NCBI GenBank assembly: GCA_009829735.1 | Contig: CM020619.1 | Span: 34,264,283 to 34,328,282 of the forward strand | DNA: 64,000 nucleotides | DNA from: Pyropia yezoensis | Taxonomy: Eukaryota; Rhodophyta; Bangiophyceae; Bangiales; Bangiaceae | Reading direction: 5' to 3' | Part shown: positions 1-45,782 of the stretch, piece after piece | Layout: each line of letters opens with the position of its first letter | Position numbering within the stretch: position 1 is the first letter of the stretch | Notes under the pieces: generated by a model | What the model was told of the DNA's origin: nothing | What the model saw: the letters and a program-made list of their open reading frames with translations, nothing else | The model's database searches: none | Program-made: the position numbers and the translations under genes

Positions 1-2
1 TA

Positions 3-26041: not shown

Positions 26042-26510
26042 TGTGGCAAAAACCACTAGCACACACGTCACCCAAGTTGGGGCGGTGTGCTAGGGCTGCC
26101 TTCCGTGTCGGGGGAACCGGAAGAAGTGCAAGTCACACACGCTCTGTCCCTGTTGTGGGGCAAACCCCCCACGGACAAACAAGAGGATGGTGTGTGGTCC
26201 AACAGTTTCTTGGTCGGGACGGGGACGCAGGGCCAAGCCCCGTTGTCCCTCCCCTTATCCCCCCAGGGTCCCCTCAGAATCTCGCCACTCAGAATCTCCC
26301 ACCCCAGCACCTGCCCACCGGGCCACACGAAAATTCAAGACGATAAATGCAGAAAACCCTCAAATCCAAGTTGGATTTACTACTAAGCTAACTATCCCAA
26401 ACTTAGGGAATATGGACCCAAATGCAGGGGGAGGAACGGATCAGGCTAGTGGCCTGCCGCCCCGTGCATGGCACGTGCTGCCCCCCTACCTGGGGGTCAA
26501 TACTGCCACA
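26042..26510 (-). repeat. 3' LTR of family-C element
   Basis: 469 bp, TGTGGCA..TGCCACA; same length as and nearly identical to the LTR at 45783-46251. In element orientation it is preceded by the purine tract at 26511-26525. Confidence 0.95.
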
Positions 26511-26525
26511 CTCCCCTCTTCTCAG
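26511..26525 (-). promoter_or_regulatory. Polypurine tract of family-C element
   Basis: The minus strand reads CTGAGAAGAGGGGAG immediately before the 3' LTR, the expected plus-strand DNA primer site. Copy A has the equivalent at about 3263-3280. Confidence 0.7.
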
Positions 26526-26848
26526 TTCCGACCGACCCGGTCGGCCCTGTGAGGGGGTGCGTAAACGCACGTCTCGGCGTTGGGGGCGCGACTTGCTGTC
26601 CCCCATCGAGTACGTAACACGGATGTGGAGGCGGTCACGTTGACCGCCCCTCGCCTCAAGCTTGCCCACTCGGCAGCTTGCTCTCCTCAGTTCACACTTC
26701 ACCATCACCACCACCTCCCCTTCACCTTCCACTGGGCCGCCCCACGCTGGGGAGGCCACCCGTATACCCACGATCCGAGTCCCCCTCAACTCGAGGCGGG
26801 TCTCGTGCTGCGATAGCCAGAGCGTCTCTTCCCAACTTGGGGAGAGCC

Positions 26849-28792
26849 ATGGCGACTCCGGGAGTGGAGACGGACTCTCTTGACGAGCGCATGGAGGACA
26901 CCTCCTACGGGGCAGCACCCGCCGGGACTTCCGGCGGGGGCTCCGCGATCGCTCCGGGGGACGGGACTCCCGCGTCACCCGGCTTTGGGTTCACGGCGGG
27001 GTCTCCCCCGGAGGCGGGACAAGTTGTCCCGCGTGAGGCCTTGGGGCGGTGGTGTTACCCCGCTTGGCCTCTTTATGAGGAGGGGCTGACTGTTCTTCGC
27101 TGTGGCCGACATGGCGCAGCGATGGGCCGGGTATGGGACCGCCTACAGGAGAAGTATCCCCGTAGGGTCGGGTTCCCTGCCGGCTTCAGGACGGACCAGT
27201 TTGCCTTCCTGGACGATGAGGAGGTTGAGGACGTTCAGCGTGCCAAGGCCATGGTGGACCGCGGGGGAACTATCCCGGGTCCCGGCGACTTGCCGACCTT
27301 CACGTGGGACGCTGTGGCAACTCGCCCACCGTACCTCCACGAGGCCGATCCGCACACTCATCACTTTGATGTGCGGATGGAGAAAGACTTCCGGCGAGGT
27401 CCCTACTTGGTGACCTCGGCTCAACTTGAGTTTCCTCAACAGTCTGCTGCCAGTAAGGAGCAGTACTGTCCGAAGAAGCCCGAGTGGTGGCCTCAAGTTG
27501 AGGTCCCCTACGGGTTCCCGGCGTTGTTGCCCCGGTTGCTTGACCACTTCGGCTCCGTCATGTTGACGGCTGCCCCTGATCACCTGGTGTGGGCCATGTT
27601 GGCCACCCAGTGGCTCCTCGAGGTCATGTCGACCTGGGTGTCCTGTGTTCAGCGGCGGGGGATGCTCTGGCGTCTCCCCCTCCGGCTCCTCCAAGGTTTG
27701 GAACAGCTCACCCCTCAGCTAGTTGCTGAGGGGTGCTCATCAGGACAACTCACTCTACTTGAGGAGATGCTCCGGCTCCATAAGTTTATCGAGTGCGAGA
27801 GCATCGAGCACAAGTTGCGCCGCCCCACTCGTGGGCCCAAGGACGATGGCGCACTTCGCCAGTTCGTGTGGGTCGCTCGTGAACTTCACGACGGCCGTGT
27901 GGTCCTACGAGAGGGGTTGGGCATCGGGGACTACCCGTATGCCCCGGGGGTGGATCGCCACACTGCGCCACCCCCGGACAAGCCCACAGTTATGGCCGTG
28001 CCGTCCTATGATGACCATATGACTCAACCCACTGCGGGGGCCCCAAGTCGGGGTCGCAGTTACACCCGGGTACCGCCACCTCGGCGGGCCCCTCCGCTTC
28101 CTCCTGTTCCTTTCCAACCTCTCGGGAACATCCCGATCAGCGTGGCCGTGGAGTCTTCCACCCCGGTGTCCCCCAACTTGGGGGCCACCCTCCTGACGGT
28201 ATACCCCAAGTTGGTGTTGCCGCCCACGCCTCTAACCTCAGAGATGATGATCACCACGTTGGTGCGCACCATTTCCTGGTTGGCCGCGTCGACCGCAACC
28301 CTACAGAGTTCCGAGACTCCTCAACTTGAGGAGCGCGTTCGTACTGCAGTGGCGACCGCGAGTTGCGAGTCGGTGGCGGAGTTTATGACAGCCGAGTTGG
28401 CTCGCATTGGGGCTATTATGCCCCAGCCAGCCCCACTTGGGCGTGGCAATCGTCGCGCGAGCCGGGCATACTCGCCTCCTCGCCGTCGTCGCCGACACTC
28501 GCGGCACTCTCCTTCCGTATCGGAAGACGAGTTGTCTTACTCCGTTTCGGAGTCCTCTACCCCGTCGGAGACGGAGTCTGTCCAGCGTCTGCGTCGCAAA
28601 CTTGCGCGCAAGACCAGGCAGAAGAGTGGCCACGGTCGGCGCCACTTGCGCGACCGTGAGGGGCGCGACGGTTCCGACTTGGAGCCGCCGCCCCCTCCAA
28701 CGAGTGGAGACCGTTATCGGCGTGGGTCTCGCCGCTCGCCTCCACGGGAGGGCGAGGGCCGTGGAGTGGGAGAGTCTAGCATGCGTGCCTAG
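26849..28792 (+). CDS. Antisense ORF of family-C element (647 residues, intact)
   Basis: ATG at 26849 (MATPGVETDSLDERMED); the frame is open farther upstream but without ATG. The N terminus is Gly/Ser/Pro-rich. Residues about 80-380 look folded, with WCYPAWPLYEEG, DEEVEDVQRAKAM, PEWWPQVEVPYGFPALLP and a Leu/Trp-rich helical run (LVWAMLATQWLLEV). Then come Pro-rich linkers and an Arg/Ser-rich tail (RRRRRHSRHSPS) that could bind nucleic acid. It lies opposite to gag-pol, between pol and the 3' LTR, with stops 111 nt apart. No enzyme motif, zinc knuckle or envelope-type signal/membrane segment is visible, so I assign no function. The equivalent region of element D resembles it. It is intact although pol of this copy is broken. 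Confidence 0.85.
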   Translation: MATPGVETDSLDERMEDTSYGAAPAGTSGGGSAIAPGDGTPASPGFGFTAGSPPEAGQVVPREALGRWCYPAWPLYEEGLTVLRCGRHGAAMGRVWDRLQEKYPRRVGFPAGFRTDQFAFLDDEEVEDVQRAKAMVDRGGTIPGPGDLPTFTWDAVATRPPYLHEADPHTHHFDVRMEKDFRRGPYLVTSAQLEFPQQSAASKEQYCPKKPEWWPQVEVPYGFPALLPRLLDHFGSVMLTAAPDHLVWAMLATQWLLEVMSTWVSCVQRRGMLWRLPLRLLQGLEQLTPQLVAEGCSSGQLTLLEEMLRLHKFIECESIEHKLRRPTRGPKDDGALRQFVWVARELHDGRVVLREGLGIGDYPYAPGVDRHTAPPPDKPTVMAVPSYDDHMTQPTAGAPSRGRSYTRVPPPRRAPPLPPVPFQPLGNIPISVAVESSTPVSPNLGATLLTVYPKLVLPPTPLTSEMMITTLVRTISWLAASTATLQSSETPQLEERVRTAVATASCESVAEFMTAELARIGAIMPQPAPLGRGNRRASRAYSPPRRRRRHSRHSPSVSEDELSYSVSESSTPSETESVQRLRRKLARKTRQKSGHGRRHLRDREGRDGSDLEPPPPPTSGDRYRRGSRRSPPREGEGRGVGESSMRA

Positions 28793-28903
28793 TTGGCAGC
28801 TGCCTTTGTTGTGAGAGTGTGAGGGTTAGGGCTGTAGTTAAAAGCCACTCTGCGTACCACTTCGACTTGAAGCACTCTCTTGGCACTGTTGCTCGGCCTT
28901 CCC

Positions 28904-29877
28904 TCACGTTGAGGGAGGGCTGTTAGGGTCTATCTCATTCCGGGCACAGTACGCCCGGACCTTCTCAGCGGGAAGGTCCTCCACATACTCCCACGTATCA
29001 TCCTTGGCTTTGTAGCCAAACCCACGCACCCTCAACATGAGGCGGTCAGTGTCTTCATCCCATCCGTGGTCGATGAACTTATCGAACACGTACTCCTGCG
29101 GGCTCTGTTTGGCCGCAGGCAGTGAGGGGAGGCGCCACGCTTCCAAAGCACGCGCCCAAGCTGGGTCGCCTGCAGGCGGTGGTGCAACTTTGACTACGTC
29201 CTGTCCGTTCACTGTGCGGACCCCATCGTCACTTTTGATGGTGAAGCGCCGCCCATCAGTACGAAGGACCTGGTACGGCCCCTTCGTCTGGAATACCAGC
29301 TTACCCCCAGTTGGGGTGTGCGAGTGTACCAGCACCCAGTCACCCTGCTCGGGGACATGTTTAGCATTGCGCACCTTTTTGTCAAAGGTACGCTTGTAGC
29401 GCTTTTGTGCTTTGTCCATCTCAGCCCTGACTTTAGGGATGAGGTTTTCAAGCCTAGCGGCGAACTCCGCCTTACTCTCAGTGGGAGTAGGCGTACTGCC
29501 ACCATCCTCCCTAGTTGGGAGCGACCGCCGCACGGCAATAGACCGCACGCGACGGGGGGTCACAAAAGCGAGGGGTACTTCCCCTGTAGATGAGTGAACC
29601 TGCGAATTGTAGGCAGTAGTAAGGATAGACATGTATTGGTCCCACGTCTTCACGTGCTCACTCACATAGTGGCGCAGCTGCCTAACAATAGTTTTGTTGA
29701 AGCGCTCCACCTGCCCATTAGTTTGTGGGTGGTAGGGGGTGGCATAGTTTGCCTTAACCCCCAACATATCCAGCACTCCCTGAAACAGTACAGACGCAAA
29801 TTGCGGTCCATTGTCCGATAGTGTACTATCTGGGATGCCATACGCGGCAACCCAGTGATCTAGGAAGGCTGGCACGA
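28904..29877 (-). pseudogene. pol: Pol of family-C element, downstream half (integrase and chromodomain-like tail)
   Basis: This is the continuation of the pol frame after the element-B insertion. It starts with AFLDHWVAAYGIPDST, then LSDNGPQ (second catalytic Asp), GQVERFNK (catalytic Glu), the GPY/F region and a chromodomain-like LRVRGFGYKAKDDTWEYVEDLP, ending at 28904. It is open throughout and almost identical to the fragment at 3-887. It is split from its upstream half by 10.8 kb, so it cannot be expressed as an integrase. Confidence 0.9.
29873..29877. other. Target-site duplication of element B, left copy
   Basis: CACGA directly before the left LTR; the same 5 bases follow the right LTR at 40702-40706. 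Together they restore the interrupted pol frame of element C. Confidence 0.95.
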
Positions 29878-30240
29878 TGTAGCAATATGGTTGTCCGTAT
29901 TGTGACCCTAATATTAGGGGGGCTACTTCTAATCCTTAACTTTCAATTTGAGAGTCCGAGCTGGTCACGGTATCTATAAGTTACGTATGACCAGAGGGAC
30001 TTGCATCTTGGGGTGGAGGGTAGTTAGTAGTGTCTCCGAGGGTTTATAACGAGGGGGCCGGTGGCGAATCCACCGCCGGCCAAGGTAGAACAACAAACCC
30101 CTCCCATTTGGGCTCCCATCTTGGTCCCGTGGCTTGCGCTCCAAGGACAGCAACCTTGGCCTCCCGGTGACGTTGGTGCCGATCCCCCTTGGTGAGTGTT
30201 CCCTGAGAGTGGACGTGCGACGGATTCCTATTGTGCTACA
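29878..30240 (+). repeat. 5' LTR of element B
   Basis: 363 bp, TGTAGCA..TGCTACA. TATAAG at 29975-29980 and TTTATAAC at 30043-30050 are possible TATA elements for the genomic transcript. It differs from the 3' LTR by a G/A in the CGAGGGGGCC segment. Confidence 0.95.
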
Positions 30241-30241
30241 T

Positions 30242-30259
30242 TGGTGGAGCAGCAGGGGA
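30242..30259 (+). promoter_or_regulatory. Primer-binding site of element B
   Basis: TGGTGGAGCAGCAGGGGA lies one base after the 5' LTR. If all 18 bases pair with a mature tRNA 3' end, the tRNA would start near GGAGCAG. I did not identify that tRNA. Confidence 0.8.
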
Positions 30260-30465
30260 CGGGTTTCCGTCACCCTTGTGGTGACGCCGTCTTCGGCCCT
30301 GGCACACGGATAGGGATCTGGTCCTTTTCTTGTACTCGTGGTGTTGCGGCCTGATCGATTGTGTTGAGTTTTTACCTGTGACTGTGATCTACTGTTACTC
30401 TCCCCAATCTACCCCCTCGCTCTCTTGTTCGTGGTGATTGATACGTCGGTTGACTGATTGTGACC

Positions 30466-32649
30466 ATGTCTACCCAAGAGACGGGGAACGTTCAAGATGA
30501 CGGATCGGCGTCGACGCCGACCCCGGAGGTGACTACGGGAACCGGGATTGGGAACCCGATCGATAACATTGAGACGCCAATGCTTTCCGGTGCCGGATCG
30601 ACGTTTGGCACGGCTCGGACGGCAGGAGACGGGGGCCCGCCTCAACTGTCGTCGACCGACCTCACTCCGCCGCCTCCTTCACCAGGGGATTCCCTGATGG
30701 CATCATTGGCCCGCATCGAGGCCCGGTTTTCCGGGCTCGACGCCCGTCAAGATCGGATGGAGGACGCAATGGCAGTGTTGATGTCAACACGGTACACGAC
30801 GGGACCCCGTCGTGTTCCTCCCACACCGGTACGGTTCGAACCGGCCGGACTACTTTCGGAGTCCACCAGGGTCAATCCCGGGGTTGCTACTCCTGGACAA
30901 CCCCCGGACACAATGGGGTATGGGTCCGACTCGTCGGCAGAGTTGGAACGGAGTCACACGGAGCGATACGCTCGGAGCACCCGAAGCGGACTCCGCGGAC
31001 ACGACCCGGCAGATACGTACGCCGGGGAAGAGTCGGTTATTGGGGGAGGGGGTACCCTCTCGCAGTACCCCCACGACGAAGGAGGCCCGGCAACTCGGGT
31101 TCCCGAGGTGCCGACGCCTGAAGTACCATCTTCAGTGGTGGAAGCTATGACCGCGCAGGTAACTGCGAGCCTACTGAAGCGGATGGAGTCCGATGAGTTC
31201 GCTCATCAACTGGCTAAGCGACTGGATATCCAGGACGCTGACACGGAGATCGTCAACGAGGTCTTCCGGTCGGTTCTTACTCCGGAACGTTATCGTTTGG
31301 AGGACCGCTCTACCACCGTATCGGAATCGATGTGTAATACGTCGCATCGGGCGATCCGCTCTATGCAGACCCTTATGAAGGGAGTCCCTATGTTCGGGGG
31401 GCCGAACGGACGCCCGTTGGCAGTCATCGGCTTCTTGACTAGCTTCAAGGCAGCCGCAGACAAGGCGCTCGTTAACGAGGGGCTGGCCATGGAGATCCTC
31501 CCGTTCTTTGTTGATGAACGGGTGCGAGGCATTCTTCGCCAGGCATCCCCGATGCCGGGAATGAGGGTCGCGGCCACCCCCATGGATTACCGTGGGATAT
31601 TGAAGGAGCTGCTGAGCAGCTACCTCAGTGAGGACAAGTGCGAGGACCACTATCGGGCCCTTCGCACTGCCACCGCCCAGTCCTGGGAGGATGAGGAGAT
31701 GTTTGGACGCCGGATCCAAGAGCTCGACTACGAGCTGGGGAAGCTCCTCGGAGAAGGGGAGCTACGGGCCATCCTGTTCGCAGGAGTACCCAACTACGTG
31801 CGGATATCCGCACGGGGCGCCAACACGGCACGGACGAACTTCAGTCGACTGATGCATATGTGCAAGTCCCTAGGGGACGCCTACCGGGTTCTACACCCGG
31901 AGTGTGCCTTGGCCCCGAAGCCCAAGGGTGAGGGAGGCAAGCCCAGTCTTACCCCGGTACCGAGGCAAGAGAAGGTGGAACGTAAGGCCGCACCAGTACT
32001 GGTGGCGACCGAACATACCCCTATTGGTGAGGGTGACCCTCTAGTCGACCAACAGGGCCACCTGTTGCTACCGGCGACGCCGGTGATTGATGAACATGGT
32101 ACGGTAGCGTACATCGCCCCGGCTGGAACCCAGTTCCAGGTCAGCGAAGGAACGGGACGGCGCGTCCCGTATGTGCGGACTACGGGGTACTCCCCGGTGA
32201 CGGGTAACCCTCACCAACCCTTGCCAACATGGGCGGTGCGCACGGAGGCACCCCCGCAGATTGCGGGCCGACCCAACCGGTTGGGGGAGTCCATGTTCCG
32301 GTTGACCCAAGGACCCAAGGCCTACCAGGGAGCAGGCACTCGGGCGCCCGAGGGAGGCAACCGTAGCTACGGGGCTACCCCGATGCGACCTCAAGGGGGG
32401 ACCGGCACGTCCGGATGTATGTTGTGTGGGGATCCCCAGCACTGGGTGTCTTCCTGCCCACTCATCCCCGAGGAGTCTCGGCGGGCAGCGGCGCAACGCA
32501 AGGCATCCACCGGGGGGTATCCCCCCCGAGCACCCGGACCCGCACCGGGTAGGCAGCCAGCTCCAGGTGGAGTACTGGCCGTCGAGGGGGCACCTCCTCA
32601 GCCGGATGTCCCGGCGGACAGCACCCTACCAAGGGCGGGAAACGAGTAA
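30466..32649 (+). CDS. gag: Gag of element B
   Basis: 727 residues, ATG at 30466 after a leader of about 200 nt. The N-terminal 220 residues are acidic and Ser/Thr/Pro-rich. A helical capsid-like region follows (MKGVPMFGGPNGRPLAVIGFLTSF is its start), then a Pro-rich linker and one CCHC zinc knuckle, CMLCGDPQHWVSSC, near residue 651. It ends GNE-TAA, the same terminus as the Gags of C and D. Pol starts 8 nt later in another frame, so the two are separate initiation events or are coupled by reinitiation. The frame is fully intact. Confidence 0.9.
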   Translation: MSTQETGNVQDDGSASTPTPEVTTGTGIGNPIDNIETPMLSGAGSTFGTARTAGDGGPPQLSSTDLTPPPPSPGDSLMASLARIEARFSGLDARQDRMEDAMAVLMSTRYTTGPRRVPPTPVRFEPAGLLSESTRVNPGVATPGQPPDTMGYGSDSSAELERSHTERYARSTRSGLRGHDPADTYAGEESVIGGGGTLSQYPHDEGGPATRVPEVPTPEVPSSVVEAMTAQVTASLLKRMESDEFAHQLAKRLDIQDADTEIVNEVFRSVLTPERYRLEDRSTTVSESMCNTSHRAIRSMQTLMKGVPMFGGPNGRPLAVIGFLTSFKAAADKALVNEGLAMEILPFFVDERVRGILRQASPMPGMRVAATPMDYRGILKELLSSYLSEDKCEDHYRALRTATAQSWEDEEMFGRRIQELDYELGKLLGEGELRAILFAGVPNYVRISARGANTARTNFSRLMHMCKSLGDAYRVLHPECALAPKPKGEGGKPSLTPVPRQEKVERKAAPVLVATEHTPIGEGDPLVDQQGHLLLPATPVIDEHGTVAYIAPAGTQFQVSEGTGRRVPYVRTTGYSPVTGNPHQPLPTWAVRTEAPPQIAGRPNRLGESMFRLTQGPKAYQGAGTRAPEGGNRSYGATPMRPQGGTGTSGCMLCGDPQHWVSSCPLIPEESRRAAAQRKASTGGYPPRAPGPAPGRQPAPGGVLAVEGAPPQPDVPADSTLPRAGNE

Positions 32650-32657
32650 GAGGAAGG

Positions 32658-35600
32658 ATGACCGGGGGGCGCTGGGGTCACCCAAGCAAGCCACCCCGGA
32701 GTACCGCGGGGAAAGCCCCACGGAGAGCGCGGTTGAGCCGACGCCGCATCAACCCCCGGGTACACCTTCCGGCCCCGACGACACGGCGTCAGGGGATTGA
32801 TGACCAACCTCCAAGGTTGGGAGGAGAGGACGGGAAGCCCCGTCACGTTGAACCAGACAAGGGCCCTGTTCAGGATGCCCGAGCTACACCGGATATCGGT
32901 GTAGGACATGTGTTGTTTACCTTGGAGAACTTCAAGGTATCAGCCACACTGGGGGTTGACCCCCAGTCGACACGATCGTACTACCCTGTACTGGACACAG
33001 GGGCTGGACCCAACCTTATCCGGAAGGATACCCTCCCGGACAAGTGGCTTCCACGAGTCAGAGTGACTCGGGGACCCACGATCAAGGATGCGAATGGTCG
33101 TCTCATTCGTACGACCGCAGCGATGTCGCTGCAGATTACCATCGGGGAGCTTACTACGGAAGTTGACTTCCTGGTATGTGAGACGCTATCTGTGCCCTGC
33201 ATACTGGGGTGCACCTTCATCAACGTTCACGTTGATGCAATCCGGCCAGGCCGGAGGACCGTCGAGCTTCAAGAAGCCGACGGGACGAAGCGAGGACACA
33301 CGGCTATCGTCAGGGACCTGACGCTACAAGGAAGCCACGTTAACGTGGCTGAGGTGTACGCAAGCGTCGAGCCGAAGACACTTCGGTTGGCCAAGCGAAC
33401 TCGCTTTGAGCCGTTGTCAGAGACAGTCCTCCCGGTTAACTGCGACCTCGCAGGCATCTGCAGAGTCCAGTCCAACCTACGGACGTACAAGCGCCATGGG
33501 TTGACCATGGCCAACGGTCTCATAGACCTCCCAGCAGGAGGGTCGTCCCTCCTAGTGATGGCGAACTATCGCCGTAAGGCAGTCACCCTCCCGAAGGGAA
33601 CTATCCTCGGGATTGCCGAACTCTACGAAGGAGATATCCTTACCCCTGATAAGGAAGGTCAAGTGGAACCACTTGAAGTACTGGCGGTCGCCGAGACCAC
33701 CGAGCGACAGCAACCCGAGGACGGGAAGCCTAACCCATCGGCGGCTCCGGCGGACCTGCCGCCAAAGGACCAAGAGGCCTTGAAGGCACTGGCCGAGGCT
33801 GACCTCGACCACCTTCCCCCTTCGGTAGCCGAAGGGGTACGACGGATGCTAAGAAAGCATGACGTTATGTGGACAGGCGGGGCCTTGGGAACCATTGGGG
33901 CAACCCAACATCGTATAGACCTGGTACCAGGCGCACGACCCGCCCGCTCACAACCGCACCGAGCGGGACCTATGCAACGAGAGATCGTTGATGGAGAAGT
34001 GAAGAGGATGAGTGAAGCTAAGGTGATCCGACCTTCGATGTCGGAATGGGGTGCCCCAGTCGTTATTGTGCCGAAGAAGGATCAAACCCCTCGGTTTTGC
34101 ATCGATTATCGACGCCTCAACTTGGTTACCAAGAAGGACTCATACCCTTTACCAAGGATGGATGAATGCATCGACTCCCTGGGGGAGGCTACGGTGTTTA
34201 CCACCATCGACTGCAATGCCGGATACTGGCAGATCCCGGTGGCGGACGAGGATATCCCCAAGACGGCATTCGTCTGTCACAGTGGAGTGTACGAGTTCCT
34301 AAGGATGCCCTTCGGATTGTCCAACGCCCCCGCTACATTCCAGCGGGCTATCGACATCATACTGTCTGGGGTGAAGTGGCGTAACTGCCTAGTGTACCTC
34401 GATGACGTCATCGTCTTCTCGCGTAACATGGATGACCATGTACAACATGTTGACGAGGTACTCACCCTCTTGAGGAACGCCGGGGTAACCCTGCGTCTGA
34501 AGAAGTGCGCCTTCTTCCAACAGACGGTCGAATATCTGGGCCACCAGATAACCCCTGGTAAACTAGGGGTACTCGAAGCCAATACCCGGGCACTCCGGGA
34601 TGCCCGGTTCCCTAACACCCAGACGCAGCTCAAGAGCTTCCTGGGAATGTGCAATGTATACCGACGGTTCGTCAAGGACTTCGCTCGGATAGCTAAACCG
34701 TTAACGGTTCTTACGAGCAGTACCTTACCCAAGGTACTCCAACCCCCTTCGCCTAGCGAAGAGGAGGCATTCGAGTCGCTGAAGCGAGCCCTACTAGCCC
34801 CACCCGTCCTTGCGTTACCGCATAGACGGGGTACCTTCGTCATCGATGTCGATGCGTGTGATACACAAGTGGGATGCACCCTGTTACAGGGAGAGACGTT
34901 GATCGGTACCGATAACGTTATCCCGGACCTACGTCCGGTAGGGTACTTCAGCCGGACACTCAACCCGGCTGAGCGGAACTATAGTGCCACCGAGCGTGAA
35001 TGCCTCGGAGTTATATGGGCAGTGCAACTGCTCCGTCCATACCTGGAGGGCTCCAGGTTCATCGTGAGGTCCGACCACGAACCCCTACGATGGCTCCTCA
35101 ACCTTGGTGACAAGGATTCCGATAGCCATGGGAGGCTAGCCCGATGGAGGCTGAAGATGGCCGAGCACGACTACCGCACGGTGTATAAGGCTGGGTCAAC
35201 CCACCACCTCGGAGACGCGTTGTCTCGACTCGACACCCCGAGCGGGGATACCCGCCCGGTGGACGAGGACATCCCGGTAGTACCGGTGTGCATGGTGGGT
35301 AATGCTACCCAGGGTATGGCTGACCATACCATGGCACACCTTGCGTGCCCATTGACCCTCGCGGACTTCCGCGAGGCACAGGCCAACGACGACGACTGTA
35401 GACGTCATCGTGCTAACCTCCTGGCCGGTACGGCCGGCATCTTCTCCGAGAACGAAGACGGACTCATATACCGGCGGGCACCCGCCGATGGACGACATCA
35501 AGTCGTGGTTCCCGTGTCCTTACGGCAAGCCGTCATGAAACGAGAACATGAGAACCCTACAGCCGGACACCCGGGGGGTTCACGTATGTTCGCAGCAATG

Positions 35601-36824
35601 CGAAGGTTCTTCTACTGGCCAGCAATGGCCGTCGACGTGGTTGACCACGTACGGGGATGCCACCCCTGTGCACGTAACCGCATGAGTCTACATAGGCGGG
35701 CGTCTGCCATGAAGCTATTCCCACCTGATGGGCCCAACGAGCAAGTCGCTATCGACATACTCGGGCCACTTCCGATAACGGAAGAAGGGAACAGGTACAT
35801 CCTGGTCATGTCTGACCGGTTCACTAAGCTGTCAAGAGCGGCAGCCATCCCGAATGATACGGCATACACGATCATGAACGCAGTGGTTGACCACTGGATC
35901 AGTGCATACGGAGTCATGAAGCAACTCCTCTCCGATAACGGAGCAAACCTTACGTCGGCATTCTGCACTAAGGTCCTGGGCATGTTCGGTATCGAACCAC
36001 GTCGGGCATCCGACTACCACCCGCAGTCCAACGGGCAGGTGGAGCGGTTCAACCGCACCATCGTAAAGATGCTACAGTGCTACGTGGCCGAGCACACGAA
36101 CACTTGGGACAGGCTTCTGTCCGTACTCACCCTGGCATACAATGCCAGGCCACATCGGAGCACAAACATTGCTCCGCTGGAGTGGGTCATGCCACTAGGC
36201 GTCGGTAACCTGACGCTGCCACCCGGCAGGTGCACTCGGTATGATACACCGAAGGGCCGACCCGCCGAACGCATCCACCTAGCTTGGTTGGCCAAGCTAT
36301 CGTGGATGATTCCTAAGCTCAAGGGTGCCCTTGACAGAACACAACTTCGGTATAAGAAGAACTTCGACGCCCGACTACGGGTGCGCAACGCAACCCTGGT
36401 AACAGGTGACTGGGTCTATATCAGACACCAGAAGTTCCGAGGGAACAAGCTTATGCAACCGGTCAAGGGACCGTACCAGATCCTCCACAGAGATGACCAC
36501 TCTGTTATCTTACACTCCGATACGGAGATCCAACGCATCAGTATGAATGATGTCACACCTGCTCCGAAGCCGGAACAGCCTCAGCCGGTACCGGCTGGGT
36601 TGCTACATGAAGCTCTTACAACCCACCGCTCGGATGACCCGGTGGGACCGGATGGGATTCCATACCAAGTAGAGAGCGTGGTCGGACACACCGACCCGGA
36701 CATACCAGGACCCTGGTACGTCAAGGTTATGTGGGTCGGATACGACTCACCCACCTGGGAACAGGCGGCGAATATACCCCGCCAACTCCTCATGCCGTAC
36801 ATGAGGCGACGACGCCTACTGTAA
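32658..36824 (+). CDS. pol: Pol polyprotein of element B, intact
   Basis: 1388 residues, ATG at 32658. Domains: retropepsin with LDTGAGPN (catalytic Asp about residue 113); RT with FCIDYRRLNL, DCNAGYWQIP and YLDD at about 580-583; RNase H with DVDACD (about 730) and TERECLGVIWAV; an integrase zinc module starting near His 964; an integrase core with Asp about 1034 (AIDILGPLP), Asp about 1093 (SDNGAN) and Glu about 1129 (GQVERFNR), a 35-residue D-E spacing; and a C-terminal chromodomain-like segment VKVMWVGYDSPTWEQAANIP. Everything needed for reverse transcription and integration is present. The coding DNA is unusually dense in short perfect inverted repeats (see findings). Confidence 0.95.
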   Translation: MTGGRWGHPSKPPRSTAGKAPRRARLSRRRINPRVHLPAPTTRRQGIDDQPPRLGGEDGKPRHVEPDKGPVQDARATPDIGVGHVLFTLENFKVSATLGVDPQSTRSYYPVLDTGAGPNLIRKDTLPDKWLPRVRVTRGPTIKDANGRLIRTTAAMSLQITIGELTTEVDFLVCETLSVPCILGCTFINVHVDAIRPGRRTVELQEADGTKRGHTAIVRDLTLQGSHVNVAEVYASVEPKTLRLAKRTRFEPLSETVLPVNCDLAGICRVQSNLRTYKRHGLTMANGLIDLPAGGSSLLVMANYRRKAVTLPKGTILGIAELYEGDILTPDKEGQVEPLEVLAVAETTERQQPEDGKPNPSAAPADLPPKDQEALKALAEADLDHLPPSVAEGVRRMLRKHDVMWTGGALGTIGATQHRIDLVPGARPARSQPHRAGPMQREIVDGEVKRMSEAKVIRPSMSEWGAPVVIVPKKDQTPRFCIDYRRLNLVTKKDSYPLPRMDECIDSLGEATVFTTIDCNAGYWQIPVADEDIPKTAFVCHSGVYEFLRMPFGLSNAPATFQRAIDIILSGVKWRNCLVYLDDVIVFSRNMDDHVQHVDEVLTLLRNAGVTLRLKKCAFFQQTVEYLGHQITPGKLGVLEANTRALRDARFPNTQTQLKSFLGMCNVYRRFVKDFARIAKPLTVLTSSTLPKVLQPPSPSEEEAFESLKRALLAPPVLALPHRRGTFVIDVDACDTQVGCTLLQGETLIGTDNVIPDLRPVGYFSRTLNPAERNYSATERECLGVIWAVQLLRPYLEGSRFIVRSDHEPLRWLLNLGDKDSDSHGRLARWRLKMAEHDYRTVYKAGSTHHLGDALSRLDTPSGDTRPVDEDIPVVPVCMVGNATQGMADHTMAHLACPLTLADFREAQANDDDCRRHRANLLAGTAGIFSENEDGLIYRRAPADGRHQVVVPVSLRQAVMKREHENPTAGHPGGSRMFAAMRRFFYWPAMAVDVVDHVRGCHPCARNRMSLHRRASAMKLFPPDGPNEQVAIDILGPLPITEEGNRYILVMSDRFTKLSRAAAIPNDTAYTIMNAVVDHWISAYGVMKQLLSDNGANLTSAFCTKVLGMFGIEPRRASDYHPQSNGQVERFNRTIVKMLQCYVAEHTNTWDRLLSVLTLAYNARPHRSTNIAPLEWVMPLGVGNLTLPPGRCTRYDTPKGRPAERIHLAWLAKLSWMIPKLKGALDRTQLRYKKNFDARLRVRNATLVTGDWVYIRHQKFRGNKLMQPVKGPYQILHRDDHSVILHSDTEIQRISMNDVTPAPKPEQPQPVPAGLLHEALTTHRSDDPVGPDGIPYQVESVVGHTDPDIPGPWYVKVMWVGYDSPTWEQAANIPRQLLMPYMRRRRLL

Positions 36825-37367
36825 CAACCCAACCGACACCGACTTCGGCTGTTGGGGGGTGAGGCTTATACCTACTAAGTAGGGTGTGACATGGTTACGG
36901 CAGACTTAGGTTTCTAAGTCAAATCAGACTTAGGTTTCTAAGTCGAACCAAGCTTAGGTAACTAAGTAGAGCTAAGCTTAGGTAACTAAGTAAAAACCTG
37001 AACCTTAATAAGTTAACTTAAAGGTAAAGGCTAACTCCGATAATATCGAAGTAACTAGGGAGCTTACACGGGAGGATGACCTCCCCAAGCCAAGACACAA
37101 AGTGAGGGAGGATAACCTCCCCAAGCATGAACCAACCGGAAGAAGTTGGGCGGGAGGCAAGGCACCACTGAGCCAGAAGGGGTACTCCCCAGGGCAGCAA
37201 ACAGAGGCAAGCAATGCCCCCAGCGGGGGATGAGTTTATACTCACTACTACCCGGCTACCATAAGGGTTGCCGGGGCCCTCTCCCGCCCAAACAATAGCA
37301 TTCCTCAGTGGGTAGACCCACTGCCCGAGGGAGGCCACTCACGCGTAAGCGCGTAGACCTCCGTGCT
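36825..37367. other. Convergent intergenic region of element B with hairpin array
   Basis: Lies between the pol stop (+) and the antisense-ORF stop (-). Four regularly spaced hairpins occur at 36903-36920, 36927-36944, 36953-36966 and 36977-36990 (for example GACTTAGGTTTCTAAGTC), with two more (GGGAGG-ATGA-CCTCCC type) at 37070-37085 and 37106-37121. The site fits a two-way transcription end or an RNA signal. No gene is seen. Confidence 0.85.
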
Positions 37368-39752
37368 TCACCGGTCGGCAACGTCACGACGGTCGACCAC
37401 CCGAGTTACCTCGGTGCATAGCTGGACGAGGGTGCTGCGGCCAGCCTCCACGTCCTCCAGAGCTTTCTGGAGGCGGTCCAGCACGCCACCGAAGCAACGC
37501 GCTGACCCAACCAGCGCTGCACCTGGGGGGATATCCCCCCAGCTAACAGAGAGACCCCCACGCATTGCGCGGGTAACAAGGGCGTCAACGCCTTCATACC
37601 AGAGACGGGGACCCCCGTCATGTAGGACAGGGGCGGGAGGTGACACTGGCGCAGCCAGAGGAGCCACAGGAGCCGACACGGCTACCACCGGAGCCGGTGG
37701 CACCTGATACGAGGCCCGGTAGGACCCTACCGAAGGGGCTCCACCGTAACCACGGCGGTACTCCGCCCGACGACGGGACACCTCACGCTCCCCACCCACA
37801 GAGCCCCACTCTCGGGGACGACGGCCAACCGCCGCCGGCATCGGGTTACCGAACCACGGAGCAAGGACCTGAAGAGGGTCATGGATAACCATGGGAATAC
37901 CCAGGTCAGGAACGGCCTCGGTGGACGCCCACCCATGGCAACTAGGCTCACCCGGCTGAGTACGCCGGACACGCAACGAGTGACGAGGCAAGGGGGAAGC
38001 CCCAGCCTGCGGGTCCCGGTACGGGGGAAGGGCCAACACCCCAGCCCAGTTCACGGCATCGTGAACAGCCAGCAGGGCTTCGAACTCCCGGGCCAACCCG
38101 GTCTTGGCAGCTATCAGATCCACGCCCAACTGCGCGATGTGCCGACGGACACCCGTCGGAAGATGAAACAGACGACCCTGCCGACGGACGGACAGCAAGA
38201 AGGATGAAGCCTGCCCGAGGGTAACCTCAAGGGTGAAGGTACCCTGCAACGGGTGGACCGGTCGCGAGGCCAACACACTCCCGAAGTAGCGAAGACAGGA
38301 GCCGGTGTCAAACCGGAAAGCAGGGGCGGGTTCCCACCCCTCCTGCCATAGCGGCGGGCGCACGGGAGTGTATACCGGAGCACGACCGTTGCCGGTCTGC
38401 AACGCACACGTTATATCCGTGCGGAACGCATCCGCCATGACACCATGGTTACGTCGCCAACTCGACGCCGACTTCAACCCCGCCATGGGCGGGTAGGGAG
38501 CCGTCAACGACAGATACGGGGGTACCCCCGGGTAGTAGTCAAACTCGGGATACCGACCGGTACGGCTCACCGTCTCCCCAAACGCAACCGGCTCCGCCGC
38601 CGCCGCAATCCCCCGAGCACTAGCCGGGTAGTCAATCTCCCGCGGCAACGCGGGGGCAATCAGGTCGCAGACCCCGAAGTTGGGGTCGAGGTAGACCTCA
38701 CCCCGTCCCACCCGGGTGCGCCAGAGCTGCGCATGCCGGTCGTCCGGCTGACTCAGGATCCAATGGTGTTCCACCCGGACCGCGTTCGGCTGGTTGACCA
38801 GCCGCACCAACTCCCGCTCCCAGCACGGGTCCACCTTGACGCGCCGGGAGGATTCTCCACGGGGATGCACCAGGTGGAAGTCCACCCGCATACGCCCATC
38901 GGACTCCATCGACTCTTGCACCGTGAGGCCTCGAACCCGAGCCACCAAGTCGGACACCGACATGGCGGGTTGACCCGCCGCCACGGCGACGCCGCCACCC
39001 AACGGGGCAACCCGGGCAGGACCAGGAAGAATCGGGGGCGCCGGGGGACGCACCACCGGCAGAGGGGCCGACGTCGGAGATGGACGAGGCCGAGGAGGAA
39101 GAAGAAGGGCGGGCGCCCGCCCGGAGTAACTCCCGGTGTCAACCGCCATGGGAGAAGGAGCGTCTTGACCGCTCGACGCCCGCGGCACCGCAGGTACGGC
39201 ACCGGCGCCGGCACCACCCGTCGGCGTAGCCCCCGCCTCGGAAGGGGAAGGCACTTGGACAGCCTCCGGAGCCGGAGCCCCGGCCGTGCGGACACCCGCA
39301 CCGTCTTGACCCGCCGCACCGGGTGTCGCACCGCCACCACCACCCGCGTCAACGTCGGGACCGCCTCGAGGAGTCACCGCCCGGACACCCGGACCACCTT
39401 GACCAGCCGGAGTCGGCTGCGGGTCGCCACCTCCGCCGCAGGGCGGACCATCTTGAGGTAGCTGCGGTGAGCCGGCACCGGCACCAGGCTCCATCCGGGC
39501 AGCCGGCAGAGAGGGGGTAGAAGCCGCCACGCGCGGTTGACCGCCGGGTTGACCTCCGGCCGACGGCACCGTCGTGCCGCTGCACACGGACGACAGTCCT
39601 CCGGCCGACAGACGGACGGACACGGCAGGCCCGTCGTCGTCAGACGAGCTCACCCCGTAACGCGCGGCGTCGGGACCGACAGGCGCGTCGTCCTCCATCT
39701 CCTCCCCGATCAGGAGGTCTTCCTCCTCTTCAAGCACCTGGGGATAGGACAT
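37368..39752 (-). CDS. Antisense ORF of element B (794 residues, intact)
   Basis: ATG at 39752 (MSYPQVLEEEEDLLIGEEMEDD). The first 60 residues are strongly acidic. A long Gly/Ala/Pro low-complexity region follows to about residue 250. The remainder looks folded and is rich in aromatic and Arg residues (VRVEHHWILSQPDD, YPEFDYYPGVPPYLSL, FRFDTGSCLRYFGS), ending in a helical LDRLQKALEDVEAGRS. It is encoded opposite to gag-pol, in the same place as in families C and D. There is no zinc knuckle, enzyme motif or clear membrane segment. Homology to the C and D antisense proteins is possible but not convincing by eye. The long open frame in a very young element, in the same position as in other families, argues that it is a real gene. 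Confidence 0.8.
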   Translation of the reverse strand: MSYPQVLEEEEDLLIGEEMEDDAPVGPDAARYGVSSSDDDGPAVSVRLSAGGLSSVCSGTTVPSAGGQPGGQPRVAASTPSLPAARMEPGAGAGSPQLPQDGPPCGGGGDPQPTPAGQGGPGVRAVTPRGGPDVDAGGGGGATPGAAGQDGAGVRTAGAPAPEAVQVPSPSEAGATPTGGAGAGAVPAVPRASSGQDAPSPMAVDTGSYSGRAPALLLPPRPRPSPTSAPLPVVRPPAPPILPGPARVAPLGGGVAVAAGQPAMSVSDLVARVRGLTVQESMESDGRMRVDFHLVHPRGESSRRVKVDPCWERELVRLVNQPNAVRVEHHWILSQPDDRHAQLWRTRVGRGEVYLDPNFGVCDLIAPALPREIDYPASARGIAAAAEPVAFGETVSRTGRYPEFDYYPGVPPYLSLTAPYPPMAGLKSASSWRRNHGVMADAFRTDITCALQTGNGRAPVYTPVRPPLWQEGWEPAPAFRFDTGSCLRYFGSVLASRPVHPLQGTFTLEVTLGQASSFLLSVRRQGRLFHLPTGVRRHIAQLGVDLIAAKTGLAREFEALLAVHDAVNWAGVLALPPYRDPQAGASPLPRHSLRVRRTQPGEPSCHGWASTEAVPDLGIPMVIHDPLQVLAPWFGNPMPAAVGRRPREWGSVGGEREVSRRRAEYRRGYGGAPSVGSYRASYQVPPAPVVAVSAPVAPLAAPVSPPAPVLHDGGPRLWYEGVDALVTRAMRGGLSVSWGDIPPGAALVGSARCFGGVLDRLQKALEDVEAGRSTLVQLCTEVTRVVDRRDVADR

Positions 39753-40326
39753 GATAACGGGTGCGGAGTCCCCCGCGCCCACAAGCCGTCGACGGCTACG
39801 ACCCGGTACGGTGGGTTAACCGGGACGAGCCAGGGAAGCGCGGGCACCCGCGCTTATGACCACAAACGGCCACGAGAAGCGCCACAAACACGCGGGTCGA
39901 CCCGCGCCCCACGGGGCTACGAACGCGCTCCACCCAGGCACCTGGGCGGGACGGGGCCACCCCCACACACGGGGTAAGCAAAGGGGGGTCACCCCCAACC
40001 GCCCCCACGCAACGCGGGCAGCCCCCGCCCCCCACTCAATCGTCCACACGAGAGGGGCCCCCCTACCACCAGGCACCTGGTGGCGGATCCGCTTGCACCA
40101 CCCCTCGGAAAGGGGGGTCGTGAACAAAAACCCGCATCGGGAAATTAACGGTCCGGAAAACGGATCGCGTGTGTACCACACAAAGGGGGGCACCCCCCTC
40201 GGACAACCTCGAAAAGGGGTGTCTGTCGCGACGGGGCGCAAAGCCCCACCCGACGGGTAAACAGTCACGCGACCCACTTACATTCGGTAACCCGAATGCA
40301 ACTCGACCCGAGGACGGGCCGAATCT
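39753..40326 (-). other. Upstream region of the element-B antisense ORF
   Basis: 574 bp between the antisense ATG and the polypurine tract. C-rich on +, with only short frames. It would hold the promoter or leader of the antisense transcript if that starts inside the element or in the 3' LTR. I see no TATA element. Confidence 0.5.
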
Positions 40327-40336
40327 AAGGGGGGGA
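40327..40336 (+). promoter_or_regulatory. Polypurine tract of element B
   Basis: AAGGGGGGGA two bases before the 3' LTR start at 40339. Confidence 0.8.
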
Positions 40337-40338
40337 TA

Positions 40339-40701
40339 TGTAGCAATATGGTTGTCCGTATTGTGACCCTAATATTAGGGGGGCTACTTCTAATCCTTAA
40401 CTTTCAATTTGAGAGTCCGAGCTGGTCACGGTATCTATAAGTTACGTATGACCAGAGGGACTTGCATCTTGGGGTGGAGGGTAGTTAGTAGTGTCTCCGA
40501 GGGTTTATAACGAGGAGGCCGGTGGCGAATCCACCGCCGGCCAAGGTAGAACAACAAACCCCTCCCATTTGGGCTCCCATCTTGGTCCCGTGGCTTGCGC
40601 TCCAAGGACAGCAACCTTGGCCTCCCGGTGACGTTGGTGCCGATCCCCCTTGGTGAGTGTTCCCTGAGAGTGGACGTGCGACGGATTCCTATTGTGCTAC
40701 A
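40339..40701 (+). repeat. 3' LTR of element B
   Basis: 363 bp, TGTAGCA..TGCTACA, one difference from the 5' LTR by eye, followed by the CACGA target duplication (40702-40706). Confidence 0.95.
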
Positions 40702-43700
40702 CACGACCGACATGGCCGTGATCTCTGCCAGTGGGATCGCTCGCGTAAGTTTCGTGAAGCGGTCACAGATGGCCAGGAGGTACTGGTTGCCCTCCTCGGT
40801 CACGGGCAGTGGCCAAAGGATGTCCATCGCCAACGCGGCGAAGGGCTCCTTGGCCGGGAACAATAGCATAGCCGTAGTAGGCCGCCGTTCCATCAGACGA
40901 TTCTGTGCACAACTTGTGCAGGCAGCCACCCAACTGTAGATGTCCACCACCATGGACGGCCAGTAGTACCTGGTCCTCAGGGTCTGGTACAGTTTACTAG
41001 ACCCCAGGTGTCCACCCGTGGGAGCGTTGTGCTCCCTCTCAAGGATACTGTCCTTGAGGGATGCGGGGACGACAAGTTGTTCGGTCCCCTGGAATACCCC
41101 CCTCCTCATGAGGAGGCCATCATCTCCCAGAAAGAAGCGCGTCTCTACCACTGTATCCAGTATATACCTCTGCGACTTGCAGAAGGGATCCTCGCCCTGG
41201 GCCTTCACCACCTCGTCCAGGGACAGGGGCAAGTACTTCTTGTTCCCTGGCGCCTCGGGGTTCAACGCCTGACCCGAGCGCGTGACTACCCCCACGATGG
41301 GGATGTCCTCATCGACTGGGTTAGTGTCTAGCCCCTCGGTAGGTACCCGAGAGAGGCCGTCGGCAAGGGCATGTTGCCTGCCAGGTCGGTACTCAATGTC
41401 AAAGTTGAAGGGTGCCAGTGGCACCCTCCATCCCCCTGTTGAGGCGGGTGTTCGTGCAATCCGTCTTGAAGATGAACTGCAACGCGCGGTGGTCGCAGCG
41501 GATGAGGAACTTCTCACCCTCTAGGTAGTGACGAAGTGACGTCACCGCCCACACCACTGCGAGTCCTTCCAACTCGGTGACTCCATAGTTCTTCTCAGCC
41601 GAGTTCAGCCCCTTGCTGAAGTATCCTACCCGCGAGTACTCCTTGTCCGGCTGCTGCTGAAGCAACACAAAACCAAGTTGGTCGTAGCTAGCATCCACAT
41701 CCAGGATGTAGTGGCCTCCCAGCCTGGGAATATTCAAGATGGGGGGCTTCAGCAGAAGGTCCCGAAGAGTCTCAAAGGATTCCTGCTCCACCCGACTTGG
41801 GGGAGGCAGGTTCTTCGGTAGCGTTGAGCTCACTAGCTCATTCAACGGCTTCGCCACCTTGGCGAAGCCCTTGGTGAAACGTCGGTACACGTTACACATC
41901 CCGAGGAAGCTCCTCATCTGGGTCTGGGTCCGGGGGTACTGAGCCTTACGAATGGCCCTCAAGTTCTTCTCGTTAACACTGAGACGCCCCGGATGGACAA
42001 CATGTCCCAAGTACTCCACCTCTTGAGTAAAGAGGTGGCACTTACTCGCCTTCAGTGACACACCGGCGTCAGCAAGTAGCTTGAACACCTGGCCAAGATG
42101 GCCAATGTGCTCCTCCGGACTTCGGGAGAACACAATGATATCGTCTAGGTACACAAGACAGATCTGCCACCGTACTCCGGCCAGAATCATGTCCATAGCG
42201 CGCTGGAAAGTTGCCGGCGCGTCACACAGACCAAACGGTAGACGCTTGCACTGGTAGGTATCACAGTGACAGGTAGAGGTAGTTTTATGCCTGTCTTCCG
42301 GGGCAATGGGAATTTGCCAGTACCCCGCGTTACAGTCCAGGGTAGAGAACACGTTTGCCTCCCCCAGAGAGTCCAGACAGTCATCCATCCTAGGTAGGGG
42401 ATAACTGTCCTTCACCGTGCTCTCGTTGAGCTTACGGTAGTCGATACAAAACCGGGGGGTCCCATCAACTTTGGGGACGATAACCACCGGACTCGCCCAC
42501 TCGGCGTTGCTGGCCTCGATCACATCGAGGGCGTCCATGCGAGCAACTTGCTCCTTAACGAGGGCCCTTGAACGAGGTCCTCCCCTGTACGGTTGTTGGC
42601 GTATAGGGGGTGCACCGCGTTTCAACTCGATCCGGTGTTGGGTGGCTCTCATGAGTCCCAATTGACCATCCCATAACTTGTGATATTAGTCCAAGAGGCG
42701 TTCAACTTGAACCCTCCACCTGGGGGGGACACCCTCCATGTTCACATGGGGTCGAGGAGAGGCGGCCGACTTGGCTTGATGCTTCTCCTTTCCGGACTTC
42801 GGGTCGCTACTTGCGCCCGCGTTGAGGGTGACCGCTACTACCGGTCCCTCATGTTGGTCGATATAGCCGAACTTGGCTCCCGACTTGAAGTACTTGGGCG
42901 TCGGGCTCAGGTTCATCACCTGGATCCTCCACGGGACTCCGGCTTTGGAGTCCATCGTGCCAAGGGCAACATGCACTTGGTGCTTGCGAGCAAGTCGGGG
43001 GTTAGGGTGCACCAACCCGTTCCCCGTAAAATCAGTTACAACGTCAACGTGCGCCACCGAGTTGGGGGGCAACGTGACTTTGCGGGCTAAACGCAGGGTA
43101 GCAGTAAACCCTTCCCTCACAGAGCAAACAGGCTTCGACTGTGAGACTGTCACAGGAGCCACAGACTTTCCCTTACCAAGGATGGGGATAGTCTCCCCAT
43201 TCATCAACTTGACCCAGTACTCGGGGCCACAGATCAAAGGCACTTGTGTTACGACATAAGGGGTACCCAGAAGCAGGGGTACCGATATATTCTCAACTAC
43301 GCCATAGGTCACGTCGACCTCATGGGTCCCCAACCTAGTTGGTAGGGTCACGGCACCAACGATGGGAAGTACCCCACCATTGATGTCAATCGTATGGTCA
43401 GCTTAGGACCTCCAGCGTTGGAGCTTCACCTCCGTTGGTAATAGCGACTTGCGTATCAAGGAGGCTCCTGACCCGGTATCAAGTACGATACGGGTACAGC
43501 ATGCACGGCCGGGGGCAAGTTGCACCCGTCCAGCCACCTGGAAGTTCTCACCCGTCAGCACCGCGATGACCCGACGTGGGTTTACGTTCTGGGGGAGTAC
43601 TACCCGAGGTGGGCGGACTCCCTTAGGTCGCCGCAGTATCCGGCACGGTTGGTTCGTCCTCCTGACCCACTTGGCCGAGGCTGCCGTTGTGAGCTTCGGA

Positions 43701-45780: not shown

Positions 45781-45782
45781 AA

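What the first reader, a model, noticed from the sequence alone, without database searches (positions are those of the whole stretch)
32658..36824. Element B coding DNA saturated with short perfect inverted repeats
Reading pol I meet perfect palindromes or hairpins every few tens of bases: AGCCACGTTAACGTGGCT (33333-33350), CATCAACGTTCACGTTGATG (33218-33237), ACTGGGGGTTGACCCCCAGT (32948-32967), CGATGACGTCATCG (34400-34413), AACCGTTAACGGTT (34696-34709), AGTACCTTACCCAAGGTACT (34719-34738), overlapping ATCGGTACCGAT and GATAACGTTATC (34902-34922), GGTATGGCTGACCATACC (35313-35330), CTCGCGGACTTCCGCGAG (35358-35375), ACCTGGAGGGCTCCAGGT (35041-35058), ACGTGGTTGACCACGT (35635-35650) and CAGTGGTTGACCACTG (35881-35896). 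Arms of 7 or more with short loops should occur only about once per kb by chance. Codon choice seems bent to allow them. One mechanism could be template switching of reverse transcriptase at quasi-palindromes; another is selection for RNA structure.
Basis: partly seen in the sequence, partly recalled or inferred. Interest (0 to 1): 0.88.

Follow-up and report, generated by a model that had tools for sequence, protein, structure and literature searches.

The report
Palindrome-saturated jumping gene in nori
A jumping gene of the edible seaweed nori has short mirror-image DNA sequences packed into its protein-coding regions far more densely than chance allows; its relatives keep them as if they were useful, and a second jumping-gene family uses a different spacing, which hints at an undescribed signal written on top of protein code.

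Summary
All 13 quoted palindromes sit at the stated coordinates. B pol holds 33 perfect inverted repeats (arm ≥7, loop ≤8) against 3.2±1.6 (max 7) in 60 synonymous-codon shuffles. B gag, 3' noncoding DNA and an antisense ORF show it too; LTR and leader are near background. Geometry is family-specific: B mostly has a 4-nt centre closed by G..C; element C, into which B is inserted, has a 5-nt centre with A-S-T in the middle. Arms are arbitrary in sequence but strictly Watson-Crick, with no extra tolerance of G·T over A·C, so folding of one RNA strand is not what is kept. Between subfamilies, arm-breaking substitutions are fewer than expected (99 vs about 158) and arm-making ones more (62 vs about 39), while variants among 30 near-identical copies follow the null: selection rather than ongoing mutation bias. 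Sites do not match B or C insertion sites. Host: Pyropia yezoensis. Best reading: a selected, strand-symmetric, family-specific array of stem-loop/palindrome sites, probably read by an element-encoded protein (inferred).

The parts
29878..40701 (+). Element B, whole: Gypsy-type LTR retrotransposon, flanked by the 5-bp duplication CACGA, inserted in element C
   Evidence: direct repeats; ends and 5-bp duplication; pol domains; 33 pol copies of 99-100% identity scored
29878..30240 (+). 5' LTR of B (2 near-perfect sites, near background)
30241..30453 (+). leader of B (2 near-perfect sites, near background)
40339..40701 (+). 3' LTR of B
30454..32649 (+). B gag-like ORF; 13 inverted repeats (arm>=7, loop<=8) vs 2.4 in synonymous shuffles
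   Evidence: distant match to C gag (25% over 224 aa, E 2.5e-14)
32553..36824 (+). B pol ORF (RT, RNase H, integrase; protease-like match below Pfam's cut-off); 33 inverted repeats vs 3.2
36825..37367 (+). noncoding stretch of B between pol and the antisense ORF, also palindrome-rich (includes a short tandem palindromic array near 36900-36990)
37368..39815 (-). antisense ORF (aORF) of B, 815 aa, no Pfam family; 12 inverted repeats vs 2.1; 24 of 26 with arm>=6 have even loops
32948..32967 (.). example site: ACTGGGGGTTGACCCCCAGT
   Evidence: six-base arms kept in subfamilies B2 and B3 while the 4-nt centre varies
33333..33350 (.). example site: AGCCACGTTAACGTGGCT
   Evidence: perfect in B1 and B2, one pair broken in B3
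35635..35650 (.). example site: ACGTGG.TTGA.CCACGT
35881..35896 (.). example site: CAGTGG.TTGA.CCACTG
34400..34413 (.). example site in the conserved RT motif (Y-L-D-D), made by codon choice
26042..46251 (-). Element C (sense on the minus strand), split by B at 29878-40701; second palindrome-rich family, odd 5-nt centres; pol 40-43% identical to B pol
26618..28792 (+). aORF of C (antisense to C), homologous to the aORF of B (23% identity, E 1e-8)
43717..45753 (-). C gag with CCHC zinc knuckle
1..3749 (+). 3' part of a second C copy (aORF on the minus strand at about 1002-3170, LTR 3282-3749), odd-centre palindromes

Best explanation
The internal region of B is overlaid with palindromic sites of fixed design: 184 non-overlapping near-perfect sites in 9.9 kb, of which roughly 130 exceed the background seen in other DNA of the window (own arithmetic). 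Each has two 6-8 bp arms of arbitrary sequence, strictly complementary, around a centre that is mostly 4 nt, usually closed by G on the 5' side and C on the 3' side. The related element C (pol about 40% identical) uses a 5-nt centre instead. SHOWN: excess over codon shuffles; family-specific centre length and motif; strand symmetry; no extra tolerance of G·T; occurrence in all frames and in noncoding DNA; near-background level in LTR and leader of B; long-term conservation of arms but not centres. INFERRED: the sites work together as weak, repeated recognition points (stem-loops formed by either strand, or palindromes in double-stranded DNA) for a protein encoded by the element itself, either Gag/nucleocapsid or the antisense-ORF protein, which loads along the element's nucleic acid to package, compact, mark or protect it. 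A copy with more good sites would leave more descendants, so sites build up by selection at the level of the element, much as dispersed packaging signals do in small RNA viruses. The two-strand symmetry suggests that both strands are read (sense RNA and minus-strand cDNA, sense and antisense RNA, or duplex DNA).
For: Excess: 33 vs 3.2. Geometry: for 6-bp arms the B aORF has 16 pairs at gap 4, 13 at gap 2, 0-1 at odd gaps 1-7; C peaks at gaps 1, 3, 5, 7. G at -3 in 75 of 92 B sites; centre base C or G in 35 of 40 C sites. TG/CA at the B centre in 23 of 63 perfect sites vs about 7 expected. Arm words are random: 52 distinct of 63, 53.2±2.6 expected. Conservation: at arms of B1 sites, B2 and B3 differ at 20 of 444 positions vs 20 of 148 in centres, 63 of 630 in flanks and 465 of 5146 elsewhere. 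Fixed losses 18, 24, 57 vs null 35.6±5.2, 38.2±5.8, 84.1±7.3; gains 11, 16, 35 vs 8.5±3.0, 9.4±3.6, 21.3±5.1 in B1, B2, B3. Polymorphism follows the null: losses 47 vs 48.0±6.4; share of losses among polymorphisms vs fixed changes, Fisher p=0.02. Even sites are spaced more evenly than random beyond a 16-bp exclusion (p=0.003, 0.037, 0.003 in B, B2, B3). LTR plus leader: 4 sites vs 12.1 expected at the internal rate, P=0.007. In the window the aORF is found only in B and C (two C copies), not in A or the D/E pol region (tblastn, E<=1e-3), and only B and C show the excess, although all four pols are similarly related (30-60% in pieces). Both strands fold more stably than codon shuffles.
Against: A plain RNA packaging signal should accept G·U, and these sites do not. 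Compensatory changes are few. Controls are not all clean: odd-centre sites of B also show a weaker deficit of losses (62 vs about 80, but with more losses than expected in B2: 26 vs 19.0±4.2) and some excess of gains (49 vs about 39), and odd-centre sites of B are also evenly spaced (p=0.005). B has a real minor class of 5- and 7-nt centres in pol (14 perfect 5-nt sites in B), so the geometry is not absolute. At fourfold sites alone the arm conservation is weak (p=0.07, 0.04, 0.33). Gains among polymorphisms and fixed changes do not differ (p=0.33), and loss:gain gives p=0.059. C shows no extra evenness in its two internal parts (p=0.53, 0.49) and no clear LTR depletion. Element A pol, without the excess, also folds more stably than shuffles (z -4.1, -3.5). 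The conservation test rests on three copies, and changes private to B3 cannot be polarised. A conversion process confined to reverse transcription would also give fewer fixed losses.
Confidence: 0.42

Rival explanations
1. Template switching or hairpin-guided correction by the element's own reverse transcriptase keeps turning near-palindromes into perfect ones. Centre length reflects how far each enzyme lets the new strand fold back, and G..C is the priming pair.
For: Arms of arbitrary sequence, strong closing G-C pair, pairing that tails off from d7 to d9; family-specific centre; fewer losses among fixed than among recent changes also fits a process acting only during reverse transcription. 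One B1 gain (32520) has two changes in the same arm. Among variants shared by three or more copies, gains are slightly high (5 vs 2.1±1.4). Template switching is discussed for nematomorph coding palindromes (PMC6649704, Discussion read).
Against: Multi-change events are no commoner among gains (3 of 16) than among losses (8 of 37). Shared variants show no lack of losses (9 vs 9.7±2.8). LTR and leader are near background. First and second codon positions in arms are conserved, not scrambled (6 of 296 vs 188 of 3844). Even spacing is not predicted.
Confidence: 0.2
2. Selection for secondary structure of the sense RNA alone (mRNA or genomic RNA).
For: Sense strand of B pol folds 11.5 SD more stably than codon shuffles.
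Against: The antisense strand is equally extreme (z -12.3). G·T and A·C mismatches are equally rare in arms: 23 vs 50.2 expected and 31 vs 73.8 expected when the other five pairs match. Centre composition is symmetric between strands.
Confidence: 0.06
3. Double-stranded palindromic operator sites for a dimeric, element-encoded DNA-binding protein, for example an anti-silencing factor made by the antisense ORF (comparable to VANC of Arabidopsis VANDAL elements).
For: Strand-symmetric core with a YR step at the centre; in the window the excess and the aORF occur in the same two families; family-specific cores.
Against: The arms have no sequence preference beyond the closing pairs; independent half-site recognition does not explain why each arm must match its own partner. 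B tolerates some 5- and 7-nt centres.
Confidence: 0.17
4. Landing sites for the integrase of B or C (self-targeting), the centre being the staggered-cut interval.
For: 4- and 5-nt centres and a YR centre resemble retroviral integration-site preferences (recalled, from no call). Three of 11 insertion sites have a 5-of-6 palindrome within 8 bases of the duplication centre.
Against: Both families make 5-bp duplications (exact in 10 of 11 sites: 9, the window B site; the window C site matches at 4 of 5), so B's even centres do not fit. Around the duplication centre the 11 sites have 0-4 of 6 arm pairs, mean 1.5, the chance level.
Confidence: 0.04
5. Base composition, codon bias or low-complexity DNA.
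For: GC-rich runs do give extra inverted repeats at 18827-22733.
Against: Synonymous and dinucleotide shuffles, parity difference between B and C, and background level in element A and the D/E region.
Confidence: 0.02

Closest known systems
Dispersed packaging signals of small ssRNA viruses (satellite tobacco necrosis virus, MS2) and of the hepatitis B virus pregenome
   Same: Many short stem-loops of variable stem sequence spread over coding RNA, with a short loop rule; up to 30 AXXA stem-loops in the 1239-nt STNV genome (PMC3593212, passages read; PMC7612645, start of abstract in the listing)
   Different: Those are single-stranded RNA signals; the STNV motif is presented in 4-, 5- or 6-base loops. 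Here the arms do not favour G·T, the centre rule is strand-symmetric, and the carrier is an LTR retrotransposon
VANC anti-silencing proteins and their motifs in Arabidopsis VANDAL transposons
   Same: Extra gene in the element; short motif multiplied within the element; motif differs between related families (PMC5735166, abstract and passages read)
   Different: VANC motifs are 8-9 base words, mainly in noncoding DNA and in same-orientation arrays; here there is no fixed word, the sites are palindromic and lie largely in coding DNA
Coding palindromes in mitochondrial genes of Nematomorpha
   Same: Perfect inverted repeats inside protein-coding genes, gained and lost dynamically (PMC6649704, abstract and Discussion read)
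   Different: Those are long (up to 284 bp) and nearly all perfect, with no excess of imperfect repeats; here they are mostly 14-20 bp, very many, with a fixed centre and an excess of one-mismatch sites
Retand Gypsy retrotransposons of plants with antisense ORFs between pol and the 3' LTR
   Different: Retand aORFs mostly carry a TRP28 domain; the aORF here has no Pfam match above cut-off, and no palindrome saturation is mentioned in that abstract

Membership tests
Ty3/Gypsy LTR retrotransposon (element B) | LTRs with TG..CA ends, target-site duplication, pol order RT-RNase H-integrase | tested here: met
Dispersed RNA packaging signals | Many dispersed stem-loops with a shared loop rule | tested here: met
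Dispersed RNA packaging signals | Pairing judged as RNA (G·U accepted, one strand) | tested here: not met
Dispersed RNA packaging signals | Bound by the capsid protein | not testable with these tools
   no binding data
VANC-like anti-silencing motif arrays | Fixed short sequence word | tested here: not met
   arm words random, 52 distinct of 63
VANC-like anti-silencing motif arrays | Element-encoded DNA-binding protein that reads the motif | not testable with these tools
   aORF present, fold unknown
Template-switch (quasi-palindrome) mutation products | Clustered changes in one arm copied from the other | tested here: inconclusive
   multi-change gains 3 of 16, multi-change losses 8 of 37; one B1 gain with two changes in one arm; no overall gain bias
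Integrase target sites | Site centre coincides with the target-site duplication and has its length | tested here: not met
Nematomorph-type coding palindromes | Long arms, all-or-none perfection | tested here: not met
   arms 7-9 in B pol; one-mismatch sites also in excess: GT 15 vs 6.0, AC 18 vs 9.2, other 63 vs 31.9

The most novel reading that the evidence does not exclude
A second code lies over the proteins of a retrotransposon clade: each family writes its coding DNA so that, about every 50 bases in B, either strand can form a stem-loop with that family's own centre length (4 nt in B, 5 nt in C). A protein of the element (Gag or the antisense-ORF protein) reads these to recognise self nucleic acid on both strands, and the code diverges between families as a self/non-self label.
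Probability: 0.3. Interest if true: 0.93.

Novelty: categorically new. Interest (0 to 1): 0.8.

Why it matters
If true, a protein-coding mobile element carries a dense selected signal defined by symmetry rather than by sequence, with a family-specific ruler. That would be a new way for a selfish element to mark its own nucleic acid, and a clean natural case for studying selection on DNA symmetry inside coding sequence. It also suggests a testable link between the unexplained antisense ORF and the palindromes. "Categorically new" refers to the pattern; its reader is not known. The literature check was limited to the nine searches in an open-access library, of which 47, 48 and 78 asked about palindromes or inverted repeats in retrotransposons.

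Tried and rejected
Composition or codon bias: rejected by shuffles. Integration target or self-landing sites: 5-bp duplications in both families and chance-level symmetry at 11 insertion sites. Sense-RNA structure: G·T test. One-arm copying: looked for in B1/B2/B3, in the diverged aORF (mixed left and right changes) and in 30 recent copies (several clusters are spaced in threes like ordinary synonymous divergence, none was seen to build a palindrome, but this was read by eye). Limited vocabulary of arm words: none. Helical phasing: none. Reading-frame dependence: none clear. Relatives outside the host: no DNA in phages, IMG/VR or GTDB contigs; proteins only, so deeper compensatory tests could not be run. 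Two polymorphism tests disagree in part: fourfold sites in maximal arms vary less (5 of 94 vs 91 of 695, p=0.029), but with the broader site definition losses equal the null (47 vs 48.0). Only 30 of the 33 scored pol copies were used (3 had no locus). Searches used gap-free gag-pol columns only; the 72%-identical aORF was left out. The window-B row used a flank one base off; one search gives the corrected value.

Full report
Where it is. The window lies in a 107.5-Mb genome whose three large contigs are 43,592,136, 34,331,705 and 29,385,039 bases. This matches the published Pyropia yezoensis scaffolds of 43.6, 34.3 and 29.4 Mbp (PMC7423979, passages read), and the three named homologues among five hits to the extra ORF are from Pyropia vietnamensis. 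Element B is a Gypsy-type LTR retrotransposon with 363-bp LTRs at 29878-30240 and 40339-40701 and a 5-bp target duplication. It is inserted in a second element, C, which runs on the minus strand. 33 pol copies of 99-100% identity were scored in the genome, a lower bound. Both B and C carry, between pol and the 3' LTR, an ORF antisense to gag-pol; the two are distantly homologous and match no Pfam family above cut-off. No such ORF was found elsewhere in the window. B pol is 40-43% identical to C pol in its two longer pieces, 41.5% to A pol and 30-60% in pieces to the D/E pol.

The observation. All quoted palindromes are present. Against synonymous-codon shuffles the excess in B pol is about tenfold (33 vs 3.2). 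It is also present in B gag, in the B antisense ORF and in noncoding DNA of B, and more weakly in C, but not in element A or the D/E ORFs. It occurs in all reading-frame positions. Near-perfect even sites number 207 in the 9.9-kb internal part (overlapping centres counted; 184 without overlap), and 4 in LTR plus leader, where 12.1 are expected at the internal rate.

The design. For 6-bp arms the B antisense ORF has 16 pairs at gap 4, 13 at gap 2 and 0-1 at odd gaps 1-7, while C has its peaks at gaps 1, 3, 5 and 7. In B the arms reach from position 3 to about 8 on each side of a 4-nt centre; G stands at -3 and C at +3 in 75 of 92 selected sites, and the central step is TG or CA in 23 of 63 perfect sites. 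In C the centre base is C or G in 35 of 40 sites, mostly with A before and T after it. Arm words are random. B also has a minor excess of 5- and 7-nt centres in pol.

Not RNA structure of one strand. If sense-strand RNA helices were under selection, G·T cells should replace Watson-Crick pairs far more readily than A·C cells. They do not (B gag-pol: 15 vs 6.0 expected and 18 vs 9.2 expected; B aORF 9 vs 4.0 and 5 vs 1.8; C gag-pol 12 vs 6.0 and 10 vs 4.4; 0.46 and 0.42 of expectation). Folding energy is equally extreme for both strands of B pol. The feature is therefore symmetric between strands.

Selection or mutation. Two diverged copies, B2 and B3 (87-90% identical), keep arms and let centres change; of 69 even sites perfect in at least one of the three copies, 23 are perfect in all. 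20 of 444 arm positions differ between B2 and B3, against 20 of 148 in centres, 63 of 630 in flanks and 465 of 5146 elsewhere; at fourfold sites alone the contrast is weak (p 0.07, 0.04 and 0.33 for sites defined in B1, B2 and B3). Counting lineage-specific substitutions, losses are about 63% of the null and gains about 158%. Among 30 near-identical copies, changes follow the null (losses 47 vs 48.0±6.4, gains 15 vs 11.4±3.1). The share of losses in the two classes differs at p=0.02; the share of gains does not (p=0.33). This is the pattern expected of selection on the lines that keep transposing, rather than of an ongoing mutational bias. The odd-centre control is not flat: 62 losses vs about 80 and 49 gains vs about 39, with B2 going the other way in losses; this may reflect B's own minor odd class. 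A correction process confined to reverse transcription is not excluded. Against it: multi-change events are no commoner in gains than in losses (3 of 16 vs 8 of 37), LTR and leader are near background, and spacing is even (but odd sites of B are also even). For it: one B1 gain with both changes in one arm (32520). Compensatory pairs are rare, and a second polymorphism test (fourfold sites in arms, p=0.029) suggests some constraint even among recent copies.

Not integration sites. B and C both make 5-bp duplications, and at 11 insertion sites the pairing around the duplication centre is at chance (mean 1.5 of 6).

What it most likely is. A selected, well-spread, strand-symmetric set of stem-loop/palindrome sites, with a ruler that differs between families, probably read by an element-encoded protein. 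The analogy is to dispersed packaging signals of small RNA viruses (PMC3593212, passages read), but the missing G·T tolerance and the strand symmetry exclude plain membership. The VANC anti-silencing system (PMC5735166, abstract and passages read) is the nearest analogy for an extra gene coupled to a multiplied motif, but its motifs are fixed words. The reader protein, the strand or duplex that is read, and the benefit to the element are inferred, not shown.

Noticed in passing
37368-39815 (-) and 26618-28792 (+): Both palindrome-rich families carry an antisense ORF next to the 3' LTR; the two proteins are distantly homologous and match no Pfam family above cut-off; the named homologues found (3 of 5 hits) are from Pyropia vietnamensis.
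   Followed up: partly
L051, L067, L071, L072 versus window 30454-39815: The antisense-ORF end of subfamilies B2/B3 is only about 72% identical to B while gag-pol is mostly 85-98% identical, as if the 3' end had been exchanged or evolves faster.
   Followed up: partly
G000:C2 about 9,880,067-9,892,399 (L054, L093): Four antisense-ORF hits at a 3489-bp period; in one unit a B LTR joins directly to a sequence matching position 37181 of B, a derivative without leader, gag and pol that keeps LTR, antisense ORF and even-gap palindromes.
   Followed up: partly
36900-36990: Noncoding tandem array of the palindromic unit ACTTAG..CTAAGT between pol and the antisense ORF.
   Followed up: no
window 5719-9372 (-): Element A pol folds somewhat more stably than codon shuffles on both strands (z -4.1 and -3.5) although it has no excess of short perfect inverted repeats.
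   Followed up: no
G000:C2:1401142-1411819: A B copy inserted inside the LTR of another B copy in the opposite orientation, with duplication GGGGA.
   Followed up: no
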